DNA from: Dokdonella sp.
GTDB lineage: Bacteria > Pseudomonadota > Gammaproteobacteria > Xanthomonadales > Rhodanobacteraceae
Length of the DNA: 64,000 bases
Reading direction: 5' to 3'
Assembly: GCA_019634795.1 (NCBI GenBank)
Contig: JAHCAR010000011.1
Coordinates: forward strand, 1 to 64,000
Shown here: one piece after another, positions 31,392-64,000 of the stretch
Position numbering within the stretch: position 1 is the first letter of the stretch
How the letters are laid out: each line of letters begins with the position of its first letter
Notes under the pieces: model-generated
Databases searched by the model: none
What the model was told of the DNA's origin: nothing
What the model saw: the letters and a program-made list of their open reading frames with translations, nothing else
Program-made: the position numbers and the translations under genes

Positions 31392-32225
31392 GTGGGGCGT
31401 CCCACGGTTGATCAGGCCCGATTTTGAATGGAATCTGCGCCGATGGGTGCGGACGAGTCGTCTGTTTCCATGATGCGCCGCAGGCGCGGGGTTGCGCTAT
31501 TGATTCGGCACATAAATGTACCTGATTGGCCTCAAGGCCCAGCCAATCGATGACCGTTCGCCCTGATCGCAGGTCCGCAGGGCCGGTACCAACAACCGTT
31601 CGCCCTGAGCGTAGGCCCGCAGGGCCGGAGTCGAAGGGTGCCCTGGCCGGTGCTTCGACTTCGCTTGCTGGCGCAAGCTACGCTCAGCACGAACGGTTGT
31701 CGTTGGCTCAACGACAGGGTAATTGGGACCCTGGATTCATGCGGATTCCTGATAAGCCTCAAAGCCCAGCCAATTGATGACCGTTCGCCCTGAGCGCAGG
31801 TCCGCAGGGCCCCTACCAACAACCGTTCGCCCTGAGCGCAGGTCCGCAGGGCCCCTACCAACAACCGTTCGCCCTGAGCGCAGGTCCGCAGGGCCGGTAC
31901 CAACAACCGCTCGCCCTGAGCGTAGGCCCGCAGGGCCGGAGTCGAAGGGTGCCCTGGCCGGTGCTTCGACTTCGCTTGCTGGCGCAAGCTACGCTCAGCA
32001 CGAACGGTTGTCGGCGGCTGATTGGGCGAGCGCGGACGGAACGAGCGGGAGGCCACAGTGTGAGTGCCTCTGCCGCCGGCGGAAGCCACGCGTCCGTTAG
32101 TCTCCCCGGACCTGATCCGGGGGCGACCGGTATCCGGTGGATGGCGGGACTGCAGGCGGGCAACTTGCACATTCGCATCTCACGACCGAACATCGGACCC
32201 AGGACGTTTGCCGGCAACTGATAGC
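31392..32225. repeat. Intergenic repeat cluster with 42-bp tandem units
   Basis: No gene is seen in these 834 bp. Two direct copies of a composite repeat (about 31521-31702 and 31750-32012) share both flanks. They differ mainly in the number of a 42-bp unit containing CCGTTCGCCCTGAGCGCAGG: two in the first copy and four in the second. Both copies end with the same ~65-bp segment containing GGTGCTTCGACTTCGCTTGC and CTCAGCACGAACGGTTGTC, which can pair partly with the unit. The expansion of the unit looks like slipped-strand or recombination-driven copy change. Confidence 0.85.
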
Positions 32226-34058: not shown

Positions 34059-34889
34059 TCAGGCGTCGAGCGCTTCGACCTCACGGACCGCCGGCACAGC
34101 GCGCCCGGCCAGCGCCGCGACTTCGCCGATCGCGATCGGCGTGCTGGTGTCCTCGCGCCATTCGATCAGCTCGAGGCGTCCGTCGTGGTGTTCGACGATG
34201 GCCGTGCAGCTGTCGACCCAGTCGCCGCAGTTGACGTAGTCGATGCCGTCGACCTCGCGCATCGCGGCCACATGGATGTGTCCGCAGATGACCCCGTCGA
34301 GGCCGCGCTCGCGCACTGCGCGGGCGACCGAGCTTTCGAAGTCGCCGACGAAGCTGACCGCGAGCTTGACCTTGCGCTTGGCGTAGCCAGCCAGCGACCA
34401 GTAGCCCGACACGCCGAGCCGGCGGCGCAGCCAGGAAAGCCAGACATTGATCCGCACCAGCCATTCGTAGGCGACGTCGCCGAGCACGGCGACCCAGCGG
34501 TGGTAGCGCGTGACCTGGTCGAATTCGTCGCCATGGATGACGAGGTAGCGCTTGCCGTTGGCCATCGTGTGCACGTGTTCGCGGACCAGGGCGATATCGC
34601 CGAGACGGATGCCGACATGTTCGCGCAGGGCCTCGTCGTGGTTGCCCGGGATGAACATCACGTTCTCGCCGTGTCGCGCGCGGCGCAGGATCTTCTGCAC
34701 GACGGTGTTCTGCGCCGGCGTCCAGCGCACGTCGCGCTTCATCGCCCAGAAATCGACGATGTCGCCGACCAGCAACAGGTTCTCGGCCGGATAGGCGCGC
34801 AGAAAATCGAGCAGGCGCTCGGCCTGGCAGGCGCGCGTGCCGAGATGCACGTCGGAGATGAACACCGAGCGCACACGCGGCAGGCTCAT
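34059..34889 (-). CDS. plcP: LpxH/PlcP-type metallophosphoesterase, likely phospholipase C of lipid remodelling
   Basis: The 276-residue calcineurin-like phosphoesterase has all metal-binding blocks: D13/H15 (SDVHLG), D43 (VGDIVDFW), N83-H84-D85 (GNHD), VIHGDEFD and GHIH. The closest named families are UDP-2,3-diacylglucosamine pyrophosphatase LpxH and PlcP. PlcP cleaves phospholipids to diacylglycerol during phosphate starvation. Its ATG overlaps the btaB stop (ATGA), and btaA/btaB consume diacylglycerol, so I favour PlcP. A second LpxH-like lipid A enzyme cannot be ruled out from motifs alone. It is the last gene of a three-gene overlapping operon. Confidence 0.75.
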   Translation of the reverse strand: MSLPRVRSVFISDVHLGTRACQAERLLDFLRAYPAENLLLVGDIVDFWAMKRDVRWTPAQNTVVQKILRRARHGENVMFIPGNHDEALREHVGIRLGDIALVREHVHTMANGKRYLVIHGDEFDQVTRYHRWVAVLGDVAYEWLVRINVWLSWLRRRLGVSGYWSLAGYAKRKVKLAVSFVGDFESSVARAVRERGLDGVICGHIHVAAMREVDGIDYVNCGDWVDSCTAIVEHHDGRLELIEWREDTSTPIAIGEVAALAGRAVPAVREVEALDA

Positions 34890-35617
34890 GGCTTGCGCCC
34901 GATGAAGGCATACCAGGGCACGCGCAGCAGTGGCACGTAGGGCACCGGCGCACGCGCCTCGGTCAGCTCGCAGGTCGGCAGCACGCTGCACAGGGTCGGC
35001 AGGTGCTCGCTGTCGAGATGGACGCCATCGTGGCCGAACCAGGCCGGCCAGAATTTGCGAGTCAGCCAGGAGTGTCGTCCAAGCCCGGCCAGCGGCTTTT
35101 CCGCGGCGACATAGAAATCGACGACGCCAAGCACGCCGCCCGGCTTGAGCATGGCGATCGCGTTGACGACCGCCGCGCGCCAGTTCGGGATCATGGTCAG
35201 GGCATAGGAGAGGATCACCACATCGACCTTGTCGCGCGGCTGCCAGCTCGTCGCGTCGCCCTGCACGGCATGCAGTTGCGGAAAGCGGCGGCCGCGTTCG
35301 CGGGCGCGCTCGACCATCGGCAGGCACAGGTCGACGACCTCGTAGCGTGCGATCCGCGACACGCGTTCGCCGAAGAACTCGATGTTGCGGCCGGTGCCGC
35401 CTCCAAGGTCGACGAGGTGGGCGTTGTCGGGCAATTGCAGTTTCGCGATCAGCTGCTCGCGACCCTGCAGCAGGCGCTCGCGGAAACGGTCGTAGTGATC
35501 GATCTGCGGCGCATAGAAGGCGGCCAGGCGCTCGGCATGGCTGCTCGCCTTCGGCATGCCACGGGCCATCGCGCGCAGCACGGAGAAATCGGCGCGCAGC
35601 GCTTCAAGCCGGCGCAT
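34886..35617 (-). CDS. btaB: SAM-dependent methyltransferase BtaB (betaine lipid N-methylation)
   Basis: The 243-residue class I methyltransferase has motif I VDLGGGTGRNIEFFG (res. ~68-82) and a motif-IV-like segment, VDVVILSYALTMIPNW. BtaB methylates the amino group of diacylglyceryl-homoserine three times to give the betaine lipid DGTS. The pairing with btaA (14-bp overlap) is the main evidence for this role, since the methyltransferase fold alone is not specific. The plcP-like gene starts within its stop codon. Confidence 0.85.
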   Translation of the reverse strand: MRRLEALRADFSVLRAMARGMPKASSHAERLAAFYAPQIDHYDRFRERLLQGREQLIAKLQLPDNAHLVDLGGGTGRNIEFFGERVSRIARYEVVDLCLPMVERARERGRRFPQLHAVQGDATSWQPRDKVDVVILSYALTMIPNWRAAVVNAIAMLKPGGVLGVVDFYVAAEKPLAGLGRHSWLTRKFWPAWFGHDGVHLDSEHLPTLCSVLPTCELTEARAPVPYVPLLRVPWYAFIGRKP

Positions 35618-36848
35618 CGGCGATCACGAATCCGGCGTAGGTGTGCACGCGATCGCCGGTCTGCAGGGCGTCGGCCATGGCCTCGTGGAAGCGCAGGACC
35701 TCGCGCAGCGGGCGGTTGTCGCTGCCGACCTCAATGGCATCGAGCCAGGCCGGACGCGCCTGCGCGCTGCGCAGCAGGATGCGCGCACCAGGCGTCGCAC
35801 GTTCGAGGATCGCCTCCCACTCCTCGCGCAGGGCGCCCGGATAATACGAACTCATCCAGTCCATGTGGTCGAGCAGGACGAAGCGGCTGATGCGTTCCTG
35901 CGTACCCTCGAGGAAGCCGGTCACGGTCGTCGTGTGTAGATGAATGCTGTCGACCAGACCACTCTTGAGGCGCTCGAAATTGTCCGCCTTGAGGTATTCC
36001 GGGCAGCAGTCGCGGTCGTAGCGGCCGGTCAGGTAGAGGCGCCAGAAGTAGTTGTCGCTGAGCGGCAACTGGCGGAACACGTACTGCACCGACTCGCGGA
36101 TGAAGCCGGCCACGCCACCGGCATGCTGGGCCTCGACGAGGCGGCGCTGCGGGTGCGGCACGCCGAGCAGGGTCATGACGAACTGGCGCGAGATGGTCCA
36201 ATTGACCGCACGATTCCACAGCCTCGGCGAGACGCGCTCGTCGTAGATGCGGCGTTGCTCCTCGACGTCGCGCGCATCGAGCAGGTCGATCGTGGCCGCA
36301 TGCAGTTTCGGCTGCGAGCGGAACCAGCCGCGCACGCAGCGCGCGACAACGCCGGAAAGCCCGTGGAAATAAAAGCTGCCGCGCCGGCTCGTGAACCAGT
36401 GCCGGTGGCGGTCCCACCAGTCGCGCGCGAACGGCGACAGTTCGGTGCGCAGGTGCTCGAGGTAAAGACATTCGAAGCGCGGGTGGTAACCCTCGCCGAA
36501 GATGCGGAAGAAGTCCTCGAACGCCAGCGTGCGGATCGCCGCGAGCTTGAGCTCGAGCAGCGCGTTCTGGCGCGGATTTGCATCGACGCAGTGGATCCGC
36601 TTCGGGCCGCGCAGCGCGTAGTCGAGGGCATTGCAGCCGGCACTCGTGATGACCAGCACGACATCGTCGGCACCGAGCTGCAGGGCCTGCCGGTCAACCG
36701 CCGGATCTTCCCAGCAGGTGTTGTAGACGAGGTTGCGCGACCAGATCGCATTGAACAGGCGGCGATCGAGACGGTCGCGAAGGCTGTGCCGGGTAGCCTG
36801 CGGTTCGATGGTCGCTATCGGCGGAGCAGGTGAGAGGCGTGCGGCCAT
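35604..36848 (-). CDS. btaA: SAM:diacylglycerol 3-amino-3-carboxypropyltransferase BtaA (DUF3419)
   Basis: This 414-residue DUF3419 protein transfers the 3-amino-3-carboxypropyl group of SAM to diacylglycerol, forming diacylglyceryl-homoserine, the first step to DGTS betaine lipid. Family blocks are LVYNTCWEDPAVDRQAL (res. ~40-56), ITSAGCNALDYAL, CVDANPRQNALLELK and the late LLDHMDWMSSYYPGAL. It is the first gene of the operon and overlaps btaB by 14 bp. The 139-bp gap upstream is shared with the divergent olsF-like gene and contains a possible PhoB-type repeat. Bacterial BtaA is best known from alphaproteobacteria. Confidence 0.9.
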   Translation of the reverse strand: MAARLSPAPPIATIEPQATRHSLRDRLDRRLFNAIWSRNLVYNTCWEDPAVDRQALQLGADDVVLVITSAGCNALDYALRGPKRIHCVDANPRQNALLELKLAAIRTLAFEDFFRIFGEGYHPRFECLYLEHLRTELSPFARDWWDRHRHWFTSRRGSFYFHGLSGVVARCVRGWFRSQPKLHAATIDLLDARDVEEQRRIYDERVSPRLWNRAVNWTISRQFVMTLLGVPHPQRRLVEAQHAGGVAGFIRESVQYVFRQLPLSDNYFWRLYLTGRYDRDCCPEYLKADNFERLKSGLVDSIHLHTTTVTGFLEGTQERISRFVLLDHMDWMSSYYPGALREEWEAILERATPGARILLRSAQARPAWLDAIEVGSDNRPLREVLRFHEAMADALQTGDRVHTYAGFVIADAPA

Positions 36849-36894
36849 GCGTTGCGTCCGAAGTCTTCGTTCGGGACGTCATCCTGCGGGGCCA

Positions 36895-36924
36895 CTGTGA
36901 CAACGATGTGATGGCATCCGTCAT
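36895..36924. promoter_or_regulatory. Possible PhoB-box-like direct repeat between btaA and olsF
   Basis: Three heptamers resembling the Pho-box half-site CTGTCAT follow each other: CTGTGAC (36895-36901), ATGTGAT (36906-36912) and CCGTCAT (36918-36924), starting 11 and 12 bp apart. They match the consensus at 5, 5 and 6 of 7 positions. The block lies 46 bp from the btaA start and 63 bp from the olsF start, suitable to serve both. The match is imperfect, so this is a candidate only. Confidence 0.35.
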
Positions 36925-36987
36925 CGCCCTGAAACCTGCTCTGGACAGCATGGCGCGCATCGCCCCGACCGACGAGTACTCTCCGGC

Positions 36988-38757
36988 ATGCTCAATCTCG
37001 AATCGAGAATCGAAGCGCGCTTTCCGCACTGGTTCGCTGGTCGCCGTGGCGACATTGCCAGGCCGCTGGTGCGTTCGTTGGCCAGGCTCTCGCGCATCGA
37101 TGCGATCGAAGGCTTCCTGCGCGACAACGCCCATCTGCGCGGTCTGGCCCTGGTCGAGGCCGCGCTGGAGTGGCTCAACTGCCGCTTCCTCGTTGACCAG
37201 GTCGAGCGCGAGCGCATTCCCGAAACGGGCCGGGTCGTGATCGTCGCCAACCATCCGCTGGGCGGACTCGACGCACTGGTCCTGCTCGCCCTGGTCGGCA
37301 GCGTGCGTCGCGACGTGCGCATCGTCGCCAACGATTTCCTGTCCGCGTTCGAGGGCCTCTCGGACCTGTTCATTCCATTGCGCATGCTCGGCGCCAAACC
37401 CGGTGCCGAGAGCCTGCGCCTGATCGACGCCGCTCTCGAGCGTGAAGAAGCGGTCATCGTGTTTCCGGCCGGCGAGGTCTCGCGCATGACCCCGCTCGGC
37501 ATCCGCGATGCACCGTGGCGGCACGGCTTCCTGCGTTTCGCCGACCAGGCCGGTGCGCCGGTCGTTCCGGTGCGCATCGAAGGCCGCAACTCGGCACTGT
37601 TCTACGGTGTTTCGGCCCTGTTCCGTCCGCTCGGCACGACCCTGCTCGCGCGCGAAATGTTCAGCGGCGAGAAGCGCCTGGTCATCCGTGTCGGTGCTCC
37701 GCGACCGGTCGGTGAAGTCATGAGTGGCGCCACCGATCGGCGCCGGATCAGTCGCGACGTGCGCAGCGCGGTCTATGCGATCGGTCGGCGCAACGACCGC
37801 TGGACCTCGTCGATGGCGCCGCTCGTCCACCGTCCGCCGATCGCGGCGATCCGCGCCGACCTCGATCGCCTCGAACTGCTCGGCGAAACCGCCGACGGCA
37901 AGCGCATCCATGGCGGTCGCCTGTCCAGCGATTCGCCGCTGCTGCGCGAGATCGCGCGCCTGCGCGAACTGACCTTCCGCCGGGTCGGCGAAGGCACCGG
38001 CAAGCGCATGGACACCGATGTCTACGACAGCTGGTACGACCACATCGTGCTCTGGGATGCCGACGAAAGCGAGATCGCCGGCGCCTATCGCGCGGTGCCC
38101 TGCGCGCGGGTCCTCGACAGCATCGGCCAGAAGGGCCTGTACACGGCCAGCCTGTTCGAATTCGACGGCCGCCTGCTGCCGACCATCGAGCGCGGCATGG
38201 AACTGGGTCGCAGCTTCGTGCCGCCGAAATACTGGGGCTCGCGCAGTCTCGACTATCTCTGGTACGGCATCGGTGCGTGGCTCGGCCAGCACCCCGAAAT
38301 CCGCTATCTGTTCGGCCCGGTCTCGATCAGCGCCAACCTGCCGCTGGAAGCACGCGAGTGGCTGGTCGCCTACTACACGCGCTACTACGGACATGCCGAA
38401 CAGCTCGCCCGTTCGCCGCATCCGTTCCGGCCCGGCGCCGCCGCGCCGGACTTCGGCCCGCTCGATGCCGAGGCGGCCATGCCGCTGCTGCGCGACCGTC
38501 TCGATGCGCTCGGTGCGCGCATCCCGACCCTGTACAAGCAGTACACCGATCTCTGCGAGCCCGGCGGCACGCGTTTCCTCAGCTTCGGCGTGGATCCAGC
38601 CTTCGCGAATTCGATCGACGGCCTGATCCTCGTCGACCTGGCCATGCTCAAGGCGAAAAAGCGCTCGCGCTATCTCGGCAGGTTCCTCGGCGAGGCAGCG
38701 GCCGGCCGCGCCGGCCCGGCTCGAGGAACGCCCCTGCAGGTGCTGCGCGCCGGCTAG
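36988..38757 (+). CDS. olsF: OlsF-like bifunctional acyltransferase for ornithine lipid
   Basis: The 589-residue two-domain protein has an N-terminal PlsC-type O-acyltransferase domain (res. ~60-260; H89...D95 in NHPLGGLDA, and the later block FPAGEVSR at 159-166). The C-terminal domain (~320-560) is like OlsB, the GNAT-type enzyme that N-acylates ornithine (MDTDVYDSWYDHIVL, res. ~341-355, then EIAGAYR). This order matches OlsF, which makes ornithine lipid alone. Ornithine lipid contains no phosphorus, and the gene is divergent from btaA-btaB-plcP. An alternative is a hemolysin-like acyltransferase of unknown substrate, since both domains also occur in that loosely annotated group. Confidence 0.8.
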   Translation: MLNLESRIEARFPHWFAGRRGDIARPLVRSLARLSRIDAIEGFLRDNAHLRGLALVEAALEWLNCRFLVDQVERERIPETGRVVIVANHPLGGLDALVLLALVGSVRRDVRIVANDFLSAFEGLSDLFIPLRMLGAKPGAESLRLIDAALEREEAVIVFPAGEVSRMTPLGIRDAPWRHGFLRFADQAGAPVVPVRIEGRNSALFYGVSALFRPLGTTLLAREMFSGEKRLVIRVGAPRPVGEVMSGATDRRRISRDVRSAVYAIGRRNDRWTSSMAPLVHRPPIAAIRADLDRLELLGETADGKRIHGGRLSSDSPLLREIARLRELTFRRVGEGTGKRMDTDVYDSWYDHIVLWDADESEIAGAYRAVPCARVLDSIGQKGLYTASLFEFDGRLLPTIERGMELGRSFVPPKYWGSRSLDYLWYGIGAWLGQHPEIRYLFGPVSISANLPLEAREWLVAYYTRYYGHAEQLARSPHPFRPGAAAPDFGPLDAEAAMPLLRDRLDALGARIPTLYKQYTDLCEPGGTRFLSFGVDPAFANSIDGLILVDLAMLKAKKRSRYLGRFLGEAAAGRAGPARGTPLQVLRAG

Positions 38758-61913: not shown

Positions 61914-64000
61914 GTCGCGAGCTCGATGCCGCCAGCCTCGCCCTCGACGGCCTGCACCTGATCGAAGCCAGCGCCGGCACTGGCAAGACCTACAACATCG
62001 CCCTGATCTACCTGCGCCTGCTGCTCGAACGCAAACTCGGCGTGCGCCAGATTGCCGTGGTCACCTTTACCGAGGCAGCCACGCGCGAACTGCGCGGACG
62101 CTTGCGCGAGCGCATCGCCGAGGCGATCGGGCGGCTGGACGGAAGTCGTCCCGAGGCAGGGGATTTGTTGGACCGGATACTTGAAAAGCACCGGGCCGAC
62201 GCTGCTTCGCTGGGCGCTGCGATGAACGCCTTGTCATCGGCACTGGTTGGCTTCGACGAGGCACGCATTTCGACCTTGCACGGCCTTTGCCGGCAACTGC
62301 TGGCCGAGCATGCATTCGCGATGGGCCTGCCGTTCTTCGAACTCGATAACGACGAGGGCAACGAGGCGGCCCACGAACTGGTCCGCGACTTCTGGCGTCG
62401 CCATGTGGTCGCCGAGGCCGACGAGGCCGTCGGCGCCGTGCTCGATCGCTGGGATACGCCCGAGGCCCTGGCCGCCGACCTGTTGCGTTCGCAGGTACTG
62501 GCCTTGTCGGCGACGCGTATCGATCCGCAGGACGCGGCAGCCTGGGTCGAACGCTCGCGCAGCGCGCTCGATCGCGATCTCGGGGAATGGCGTCGCCTGT
62601 ACGCCGAGGGTCCAGTTGCAGCCGCGTTGCAGCAGTTGCAGGAGGCCATCGCGCAGAAGTGGCTGAAGTCGGCGAAGACGACGCCGCTCGGCGTCGAGTC
62701 GATGCAGCGTTGCGTGCAGGCCTGCACCGGGGGCGCGGTCGAGGTCGACATCGATGCGCTCGCCGCGCTTGCCGCCAGCGCGATCGCCGATGCCGTGTCG
62801 GAAAAGGCGAACAAGGCCGGCTGGACGGTGCCGCCCGAACTTGCCGAGGTATCGGCCTGTGTCGAGGCCTTGCGGACCGCTTCGCAAACGCTGCGCAACG
62901 CAGTGCTGGCACGGTTCACCGGCGCCGCCATCGCCTTCGTGCGCGAAGGGCTGGCGGCGCGCCGCGAGCGTCTGCGCCGACTCGGATTCGACGATCTGAT
63001 CGGCCTCCTGCACGAGCATCTCGAAGGCGATACCGGCGCGCGCCTCGCGCGGGCGATCGCCACCGACATTTCGGCCCTGCTGGTCGACGAGTTCCAGGAC
63101 ACCGATCCCCTGCAGTACGCGATCCTGCGGCGCATCCATGCGGCGCGCGAGGATGCCGTGTTGCTGCTGATCGGCGATCCCAAGCAGGCCATCTACCGCT
63201 TCCGCGGCGGCGATATCCACACCTATCACACGGCGGCCCGGGATGCCGGCGCCAACCGCCATACCCTGCGCGACAACTGGCGCTCCGATGCGCCGCTGAT
63301 CGCCGCGGCCAACGCGATCTTCGATGGGGTCGAGGATCCGTTCCTGGTCGACTTCATCGGCTTCGAGCCGGCCCGCTTTCCGTCGGCCAAGGGGGCCTCG
63401 GCGCACTGGCTGGCCAGTGCCACGCCGCTGACCGTATGGCGCCTGCCCGATCGCCTGGAAAAGAACAAGGCCAAACCGTGGACGTCACCGGCATTCAGCG
63501 AGCGCGTGCTCGGCGCGGTTTGCGCCGAGGTTCGCGGACTTCTCGCCGAGGCGAGGGAAAATGGACACGCACTGCCGGAAATCGCCGTGCTCGTGCAGAG
63601 CAATCGTCAGGCCGAACAGGCGGCGCGGGAGCTGGCCCGCTGGAACATCGCCTGCGACTACCTAAGCGCAGCCAGCGTTTACGCGAGCGCCGAAGCGCTC
63701 GAGATCGAGCGCCTGCTGGCGGCCCTCGATGCACCGGCCGACGCGGCCCGCGTGCGCGCGGCGCTGGCGACCGAACTGCTCGGCCATGACCTTCAGGCCC
63801 TGCTCGAAGCCCAACAGGACCTGAGCCGCTGGGAGGAGCAACTCGCGCAGATCGCGCTGCTGCGCCAGCGCTGGCTCGAGGCCGGGCCCTACGCCGCGAT
63901 CGCGCATTGCGTGCAGGCCGCCGCCACGCGCCTGTTGCCGCGCTGGGACGGTCGCCGTCGCGTCACCAACCTGCTGCACCTGGCCGAGCTGCTGCAACAG
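61910..64000 (+). CDS. recB: RecBCD subunit RecB (5' part; continues past the window)
   Basis: The frame opens at the ATG overlapping the recC stop and has no stop to the end of the window (697 codons visible). It encodes a UvrD-type helicase subunit of exodeoxyribonuclease V. Walker A EASAGTGKTYN (res. ~19-29) is followed by FTEAATRELRGRLRERI. Motif II VDEFQDTD is at 392-399, then motif III-like GDPKQAIYRFRGGD. The C-terminal nuclease domain lies beyond the window. A recD gene would be expected to follow. Confidence 0.93.
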   Translation, partial: MSRELDAASLALDGLHLIEASAGTGKTYNIALIYLRLLLERKLGVRQIAVVTFTEAATRELRGRLRERIAEAIGRLDGSRPEAGDLLDRILEKHRADAASLGAAMNALSSALVGFDEARISTLHGLCRQLLAEHAFAMGLPFFELDNDEGNEAAHELVRDFWRRHVVAEADEAVGAVLDRWDTPEALAADLLRSQVLALSATRIDPQDAAAWVERSRSALDRDLGEWRRLYAEGPVAAALQQLQEAIAQKWLKSAKTTPLGVESMQRCVQACTGGAVEVDIDALAALAASAIADAVSEKANKAGWTVPPELAEVSACVEALRTASQTLRNAVLARFTGAAIAFVREGLAARRERLRRLGFDDLIGLLHEHLEGDTGARLARAIATDISALLVDEFQDTDPLQYAILRRIHAAREDAVLLLIGDPKQAIYRFRGGDIHTYHTAARDAGANRHTLRDNWRSDAPLIAAANAIFDGVEDPFLVDFIGFEPARFPSAKGASAHWLASATPLTVWRLPDRLEKNKAKPWTSPAFSERVLGAVCAEVRGLLAEARENGHALPEIAVLVQSNRQAEQAARELARWNIACDYLSAASVYASAEALEIERLLAALDAPADAARVRAALATELLGHDLQALLEAQQDLSRWEEQLAQIALLRQRWLEAGPYAAIAHCVQAAATRLLPRWDGRRRVTNLLHLAELLQQ

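What the first reader, a model, noticed from the sequence alone, without database searches (positions are those of the whole stretch)
34059..38757. A phosphorus-free lipid island: btaA-btaB-plcP opposite olsF
Four neighbouring genes fit one job. A PlcP/LpxH-type phosphoesterase could release diacylglycerol from phospholipids. BtaA and BtaB would turn the diacylglycerol into the betaine lipid DGTS, and an OlsF-like enzyme would make ornithine lipid. The three minus-strand genes overlap (14 bp and 4 bp), and olsF is divergent across a 139-bp gap. Pi-starvation lipid remodelling with these parts is known mainly from alphaproteobacteria and marine bacteria. A compact set joining betaine and ornithine lipid synthesis in a xanthomonad-like gammaproteobacterium would be notable. 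Motifs are seen directly; the joint function is inferred.
Basis: partly seen in the sequence, partly recalled or inferred. Interest (0 to 1): 0.82.

Follow-up and report, generated by a model that had tools for sequence, protein, structure and literature searches.

The report
Phosphate-switched phosphorus-free lipid gene island
A bacterium related to Dokdonella carries, in one compact and probably phosphate-controlled unit, the genes to break down phosphorus-containing membrane lipids and to make two phosphorus-free replacements; each part is known, but this joined arrangement looks like a new variant.

Summary
Confirmed: plcP-btaB-btaA (minus strand, overlaps 4 and 14 bp) stands back to back with olsF across 139 bp. 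OlsF passes its curated model; BtaA matches DUF3419 over its length. The phosphoesterase is PlcP-like, not LpxH: 56 bits against an LpxH cut-off of 190, 50% identical to the S. meliloti homologue, and the genome holds two LpxH genes over the cut-off. The set is no accident: of ten genomes of the genus in the sample, 7 have btaA, olsF and plcP (6 on one contig, one split) and 3 have none, with at least two separate changes on a pstS tree; the block sits at different chromosomal sites in different species. New here: the spacer holds back-to-back Pho-box-like sites, found in 8 of 8 loci. With a matrix from 18 pstS promoters outside the genus, the three best of 127,966 window positions (two overlap) lie in this spacer. 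Likely function: PhoB-switched membrane remodelling, as in S. meliloti. plcP-btaAB clusters and PhoB-controlled olsF are published; the joined divergent unit, with parts of different ancestry, I did not find in ten searches of an open-access library. No lipid or transcript was measured.

The parts
34059..34889 (-). plcP: phospholipase C-type phosphoesterase (type I PlcP)
   Evidence: Metallophos PF00149; 50% identity over 265 aa to the S. meliloti homologue near an AHL synthase gene and a LuxR-type gene; far below the LpxH cut-offs; tree
34886..35617 (-). btaB: SAM-dependent N-methyltransferase (DGHS to DGTS, inferred)
   Evidence: Methyltransf_23/25/11; next to btaA; 36% identity over 170 aa to the S. 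meliloti methyltransferase beside the btaA match
35604..36848 (-). btaA: SAM:diacylglycerol 3-amino-3-carboxypropyl transferase (DAG to DGHS, inferred)
   Evidence: DUF3419 PF11899, 406 bits, residues 32-410; AlphaFold2 model mean pLDDT 86.4; the best PDB matches are weak and nearly all SAM methyltransferases
36849..36987 (.). 139-bp divergent control region shared by btaA and olsF
   Evidence: holds the three best Pho-box matches of the 64 kb window, two of them overlapping
36897..36914 (-). Pho-box-like site facing btaA (CCATCACATCGTTGTCAC)
   Evidence: its pattern is found in 8 of 8 loci; overlaps a + strand match at 36895-36912
36918..36935 (+). Pho-box-like site facing olsF (CCGTCATCGCCCTGAAAC)
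   Evidence: best of 127,966 positions with the out-of-genus pstS matrix; its pattern is found in 8 of 8 loci
36988..38757 (+). olsF: bifunctional ornithine lipid synthase (N- and O-acyltransferase)
   Evidence: NF052615 688 bits against a cut-off of 620, residues 1-563; PF19576 and PF13444

Best explanation
A PhoB-switched membrane-remodelling unit. When phosphate runs short, PhoB binds back-to-back Pho boxes in the 139-bp spacer and turns on both arms. To the left, btaA-btaB-plcP: PlcP removes the phospho-head group of membrane phospholipids and leaves diacylglycerol; BtaA adds the homoserine moiety from SAM; BtaB methylates it three times to the betaine lipid DGTS. To the right, olsF: OlsF acylates ornithine twice to ornithine lipid, a phosphorus-free lipid that needs no glycerol backbone. 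Phosphate is spared while a zwitterionic membrane is kept. Shown: genes, families, conserved block, conserved Pho-box-like DNA, presence of phoB and pst genes. Inferred: the enzyme activities, the ornithine specificity of OlsF, PhoB binding and the lipids.
For: Families. PlcP not LpxH. All-or-none in the genus: 7 of 10 sampled genomes have btaA, olsF and plcP, 3 of 10 have none; on a pstS tree the label 'without' needs 2 changes and the starred branches force at least 2. Order kept at different chromosomal sites. Pho boxes: 8 of 8 spacers beat shuffles at p<=0.022 with a matrix of 28 pstS promoters and at p<=0.009 with 18 promoters outside the genus; the three best of 127,966 window positions, two of them overlapping, lie in the spacer. 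PhoB over cut-off in 10 of 10 genus genomes; pstS, pstC, pstB and phoU over cut-off in the own genome. In other genera of the family 20 of 23 plcP promoters tested carry the same box at p<=0.05; 5 of the 23 genes stand head to head with btaA (coordinates). The logic is known from S. meliloti (PMC3972451, passages).
Against: No expression or lipid data. BtaA is only about 30% identical to the S. meliloti btaA match, which is in two pieces in the record held. The btaA-facing box is weaker: only 4 of 7 btaA promoters of the genus reach p<=0.05 by shuffles. In other genera btaA passes in only 5 of 19 and olsF in 5 of 30. OlsF's amino-acid specificity cannot be read from sequence. Dokdonella aquatica (exponential-phase cells; [quoted passage not shown] this would fit repression at high phosphate but is not support.
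Confidence: 0.86

Rival explanations
1. The phosphoesterase is a lipid A enzyme (LpxH or a paralogue) that happens to neighbour lipid genes; the island is only betaine and ornithine lipid synthesis with diacylglycerol from elsewhere.
For: Public annotation labels such homologues UDP-2,3-diacylglucosamine diphosphatase; weak LpxH profile match of 56 bits; its only PDB sequence matches are three sequences named UDP-2,3-diacylglucosamine hydrolase, best 38.9 bits.
Against: Two other LpxH over cut-off in the genome; 50% identity to the S. meliloti homologue against 26% to E. coli LpxH; 100/100 split in the tree; the S. meliloti and P. aeruginosa homologues score similarly low on the LpxH models, 38-55 bits.
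Confidence: 0.05
2. A constitutive or differently regulated aminolipid set (temperature, pH, membrane charge) rather than a phosphate response.
For: A second OlsF of Vibrio cholerae answers to salinity, not phosphate (PMC12186959, abstract and passages).
Against: Pho-box-like sites in 8 of 8 spacers and the top three positions of the window; neighbour genes are low: recQ 1 of 7, hflC-like 0 of 4, POT 0 of 5, corA 0 of 1 at p<=0.05, cstA not testable in those loci; PlcP makes most sense as phosphate recovery (inference).
Confidence: 0.08
3. Neighbouring by chance or shared inheritance of a chromosome stretch, with no joint function.
For: The genes also live apart in other genera: 0 of 18 family genomes outside the genus with both btaA and olsF have them adjacent, many being drafts, and 1 of 8 in the class sample, the window's own.
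Against: The block is kept at different sites with different flanks and its presence changes as a whole at least twice; olsF-plcP and btaAB-plcP pairs recur separately.
Confidence: 0.04

Closest known systems
plcP-btaA-btaB cluster, 'type 1' arrangement, Phaeobacter sp. MED193 (PMC4796936)
   Same: PlcP next to btaA and btaB; putative Pho boxes reported for plcP clusters; in the plcP deletion mutant DGTS was not detectable under phosphate limitation
   Different: No olsF in the described arrangement; there btaA and btaB lie downstream of plcP, here plcP is last in the row
S. meliloti PhoB-controlled PlcP / BtaAB / ornithine lipid response (PMC3972451, passages)
   Same: Same three activities under PhoR-PhoB
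   Different: Dispersed there (in the record held, the plcP and btaA matches lie about 390 kb apart); OlsBA instead of OlsF (PMC12186959, passages)
PhoB-dependent OlsF VC0489 of Vibrio cholerae (PMC12186959)
   Same: OlsF induced by phosphate limitation through PhoB
   Different: No link there to plcP or betaine lipid genes in the passages read
plcP-agt operon of Pseudomonas aeruginosa, PA3219-PA3218 (PMC8528852, passages)
   Same: PlcP homologue, Pho box, diacylglycerol recycled into a phosphorus-free lipid
   Different: The product is a glycolipid made by a glycosyltransferase, not DGTS
btaA-btaB-plcP strings in seven named loci, mostly betaproteobacterial MAGs (L062, L068, L070, L096, L100, L105, L107)
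   Same: Same gene order, related PlcP
   Different: No olsF beside it (L100 has only a 30-bit match)

Membership tests
PlcP (phosphate-starvation phospholipase C) | Groups with characterised PlcP and apart from LpxH | tested here: met
   three LpxH rows split off at 100/100; the S. meliloti and P. aeruginosa homologues are on the window's side; 50% identity to the former. That these two are the characterised PlcP rests on gene neighbours, recall and PMC8528852.
PlcP (phosphate-starvation phospholipase C) | Cleaves PE/PC/PG to diacylglycerol | not testable with these tools
   Needs an enzyme assay
LpxH (UDP-2,3-diacylglucosamine diphosphatase) | Reaches the curated TIGR01854 / NF003743 cut-off | tested here: not met
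   55.6 of 190.35 and 56.5 of 134 bits; the genome's two LpxH reach 300 and 270 bits on TIGR01854
BtaA | Full-length DUF3419 domain beside a SAM methyltransferase gene | tested here: met
   406 bits, residues 32-410; btaB overlaps by 14 bp
BtaA | Transfers 3-amino-3-carboxypropyl from SAM to diacylglycerol | not testable with these tools
   The model shows only weak SAM-methyltransferase-like matches
BtaB | SAM methyltransferase related to a proven BtaB | tested here: inconclusive
   36% over 170 aa to the S. meliloti neighbour of the btaA match; no BtaB model among the NCBIfam matches
OlsF (bifunctional ornithine lipid synthase) | Passes NF052615 over both domains | tested here: met
   688 against 620 bits, residues 1-563
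OlsF (bifunctional ornithine lipid synthase) | Uses ornithine, not glycine, glutamine or lysine | not testable with these tools
   Below the GlsA/GlsB cut-offs (143 of 260, 117 of 300), but specificity needs an assay
Pho regulon member | Pho box like that of pstS in the promoter | tested here: met
   8 of 8 loci; top three positions of the window; weaker for the btaA arm (4 of 7 by shuffles)
Pho regulon member | PhoB-dependent transcription | not testable with these tools
   Needs expression data

The most novel reading that the evidence does not exclude
The phosphorus-free membrane programme of this lineage has condensed from a dispersed Pho regulon into one self-contained switch. Genes of different ancestry (family-type btaAB, a PlcP unlike the family's usual one, an OlsF of a second lineage) came to share one 139-bp back-to-back PhoB control region that sets DGTS and ornithine lipid together. 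The block is now kept, moved or lost as a whole, so that species of one genus differ by possession or lack of the entire phosphate-sparing membrane.
Probability: 0.45. Interest if true: 0.6.

Novelty: new variant of a known kind. Interest (0 to 1): 0.48.

Why it matters
It shows two phosphorus-free lipid pathways and the diacylglycerol supply joined in one divergent, probably PhoB-controlled unit in a Lysobacterales lineage. The genus offers natural with/without pairs (for example G206 and G207), so the ecological value of membrane phosphorus sparing and the assembly of a regulon into a cluster can be tested directly. It also warns that genes labelled as the lipid A enzyme LpxH beside lipid genes may be PlcP.

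Tried and rejected
LpxH reading of 34059-34889: rejected. PDB sequence search for BtaA: 0 matches at E<=0.01. Foldseek of the BtaA model: no match at E<=0.001; the 50 rows shown are nearly all SAM methyltransferases, query TM-scores 0.13-0.22, so it says only 'SAM-enzyme-like'. Mobile-element origin of the block: none of the 17 proteins tested around the block or the empty site matched a transposase or integrase family, and the block trees look roughly like the pstS tree, so vertical descent with loss and relocation is preferred to recent transfer; this was judged by eye, not tested. Gene-body controls for Pho boxes were replaced by shuffles and neighbour genes, because coding DNA is a poor control. 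By shuffles, btaA (5 of 19) and olsF (5 of 30) of other genera mostly fail, so I do not claim that these are Pho-controlled everywhere. An early idea that the best window match at 62615 was another Pho gene was dropped: ORFs cover it on both strands, and it falls to fourth with the stricter matrix.

Rows dropped or chosen: of 30 pstS loci, L143 (partial) and L117 (contig edge) were left out, giving 28; the 10 promoters of the genus were left out, giving 18, among them two each from G001 and G013. Spacer ends of the seven other loci are tblastn ends, so approximate. One search left out L171 (partial btaA) and took the best 30 of the olsF and plcP matches. L231 was dropped as too short (62 of 63 rows kept; the 63 were my choice). 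L060 was left out of the alignment. The OlsF tree had 52 rows of my choice: 17 of the 30 family loci held, 23 of the 29 class loci held, and 12 others. Whether L049 belongs to the window's genus was not established.
Full report
OBSERVATION. The minus-strand three overlap by 4 and 14 bp; olsF starts 139 bp from btaA. Curated models: OlsF 688 bits against a cut-off of 620 over residues 1-563; DUF3419 (BtaA) 406 bits over residues 32-410; btaB a class I methyltransferase and plcP a calcineurin-like phosphoesterase. Flanks are ordinary: a RecQ helicase gene on one side, POT-family transporter, CorA and CstA genes on the other. The window lies on contig 3 of an 85%-complete draft genome of 51 contigs. 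Its nearest named kin are G205, whose block DNA is that of 'Lysobacterales bacterium 63-13' (L036), and G200, whose block DNA is that of a 'Dokdonella sp.' MAG (L042); both are of the window's genus by the tool's table.

PLCP, NOT LPXH. The window protein scores 55.6 bits on the LpxH model whose cut-off is 190.35. The same genome has two genes over it, at 300 and 270 bits. It is 50% identical over 265 residues to the S. meliloti homologue that stands near an acyl-homoserine-lactone synthase gene and a LuxR-type gene; that this is SMc00171, the PlcP of Zavaleta-Pastor et al., is recalled, not looked up. It is 52.7% identical over 88% of its length to the P. aeruginosa homologue beside a glycosyltransferase gene, which fits PA3219, shown by mutants to feed glycolipid synthesis (PMC8528852, passages). 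It is 26% identical to E. coli LpxH. In a tree of 53 rows the three LpxH split off at 100/100, on a long branch, and the window sits on the PlcP side. The S. meliloti and P. aeruginosa homologues also score low on the LpxH models (38-55 bits). The only solved structures it matches by sequence are three sequences named UDP-2,3-diacylglucosamine hydrolase, best 38.9 bits.

DISTRIBUTION. In 79 of 80 a btaB match of 128 bits or more lies nearby, and in 4 of 80 a strong olsF match (792 bits or more): L036, L042, L049 and Chiayiivirga L089; two others have 30-bit matches only. In 197 genomes of the window's family, btaA is in 27, olsF in 143 and a PlcP relative in 128. Of the 27 with btaA, 25 have an olsF match (in G307 two pieces below the cut-off). 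The two are adjacent in 7 of 7 genomes of the window's genus but in 0 of 18 of the others with both, many of which are drafts. In 369 genomes of the class, btaA is in 28, olsF-like genes in 44 (21 over the cut-off), both in 8, adjacent only in the window's genome.

ALL OR NONE. Ten genomes of the genus came up in the sample. Seven have btaA, olsF and plcP; three (G202, G203, G207; 99, 87 and 99% complete) have no match at E<=1e-20 (btaA, plcP) or 1e-60 (olsF). On a one-gene tree of pstS the three do not form one group: G207 pairs with block-carrying G206 at 100/99, G202 with G203, and the starred branches force at least 2 changes; whether these are losses or gains is not shown, and several forks are weak. 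In G000, G201, G204 and G205 the block lies between recQ and the POT gene. In G202 and G203 the orthologous POT gene and the gene otherwise beyond recQ are there, but block and recQ are not; in G202 a DUF4915 gene lies between. In G031 and G200 the block lies near genes of tyrosine breakdown (fumarylacetoacetase-type in G031; homogentisate and hydroxyphenylpyruvate dioxygenases in G200), with recQ far away; L049 has yet other flanks. In G206 two contig ends fall between btaB and btaA, which fits an intact block but does not prove it.

CONTROL REGION. The eight spacers are poorly alike except for one composite element: TGACA-N5-GTGA and, at a 22-23 bp offset, GTCA[CT]-N4-NTG[AC]AA[CT]. Read on each strand this is a Pho-box-like site facing btaA and another facing olsF, ending 48 and 52 bp from the two start codons in the window. 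A matrix was trained on pstS promoters, seeded with the recalled E. coli consensus. With 28 promoters, 8 of 8 spacers beat 500 shuffles at p<=0.022, and spacer sites rank 2, 3 and 6 of 127,966 positions in the window. With the 18 promoters outside the genus, 8 of 8 have p<=0.009 in 1000 shuffles, and the three best positions of the window are all in the spacer: +36918, +36895 and -36897; the last two are the same DNA read on both strands. In single-strand shuffle tests olsF passes p<=0.05 in 7 of 7 loci (six of the genus and L049), btaA of the genus in 4 of 7, plcP (inside the row) in 0 of 7; neighbours recQ 1 of 7, hflC-like 0 of 4, POT 0 of 5, corA 0 of 1. Elsewhere in the family plcP passes in 20 of 23 loci tested, btaA in 5 of 19, olsF in 5 of 30. 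PhoB is over its cut-off in 10 of 10 genus genomes, and pstS, pstC, pstB and phoU lie together in the window's genome. The loci are related, so eight loci are fewer than eight independent witnesses; G201 is very close to the window.

DIFFERENT ANCESTRIES. BtaA of the genus lies within the family's BtaA (88% SH-aLRT, quick tree), as expected of vertical descent. Its PlcP is outside the clade of 25 other family PlcP (100/99). Its OlsF lies with that of Chiayiivirga (100) and then with OlsF genes that sit beside plcP in other genera (97), not with the 17 other family rows (quick tree). Strings of olsF-plcP without btaA occur in the same family and order (L263, L264, L307), and one locus has olsF-plcP convergent with btaAB (L029). 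So these genes cluster repeatedly in different sets. Which sets are gains and which are losses was not reconstructed.

MECHANISM. Established knowledge: PlcP frees diacylglycerol from phospholipids, BtaA and BtaB turn it into DGTS, and PhoB controls this and ornithine lipid synthesis in S. meliloti (PMC3972451, passages). DGTS was not detectable in a plcP deletion mutant of Phaeobacter sp. MED193 under phosphate limitation (PMC4796936, passages and section 13). OlsF VC0489 is PhoB-dependent in V. cholerae (PMC12186959, abstract and passages). The island joins these steps; its activities are inferred.

NOVELTY. plcP-btaAB clusters and Pho control are in print. Ten full-text searches of an open-access library were made: betaine lipid + btaA + OlsF (1 paper); PlcP + betaine lipid + Gammaproteobacteria; btaA + betaine lipid + bacteria since 2017; OlsF + ornithine lipid; three of betaine lipid, ornithine lipid, phosphate, Xanthomonadales (27 papers, 25 listed, none of these with Xanthomonadales); Dokdonella + aminolipid + polar lipids; PlcP + ornithine lipid + operon; two of betaine lipid, diacylglyceryl trimethylhomoserine, methanotroph since 2015; btaB + ornithine lipid; three of DGTS, Gammaproteobacteria, betaine lipid, btaA. 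No title or abstract start listed speaks of such a joined unit. I read passages of eight papers and one section of one of them in full, none from end to end. I therefore call it a new variant of a known kind; a description in a subscription journal or in supplementary tables could have been missed.

Noticed in passing
G000:C12:2891-3571 and G000:C35:1299-1970 (L261, L262): The window's genome carries two LpxH genes, both over the curated cut-off, rather than one.
   Followed up: partly
L263, L264, L307: olsF followed by a type II plcP on the same strand, without btaA in the stretch, in the same family and order: a second recurring link between PlcP and aminolipid synthesis, although OlsF needs no diacylglycerol.
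   Followed up: partly
L208-L230: plcP genes of other genera of the family carry a pstS-like Pho box; the best site lies 73-88 bp before the inferred start in 23 of 23, and 20 of 23 pass p<=0.05 by shuffles. Five of them stand head to head with btaA.
   Followed up: yes
G202, G203 (L252, L253): Two genus genomes (99 and 87% complete) show no recQ match at E<=1e-80; recQ and the lipid block are missing together from the site between the POT gene and the ORF otherwise beyond recQ.
   Followed up: partly
window 31553-32019: A 156-nt stretch (31553-31708) recurs at 97% at 31864-32019, with 42-bp-spaced partial copies before it and inverted 26-nt arms, between an ORF without a Pfam match and recQ.
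   Followed up: no
window 35604-36848: Foldseek found no solved structure at E<=0.001 for the BtaA model (mean pLDDT 86.4); the weak matches are nearly all SAM methyltransferases.
   Followed up: partly
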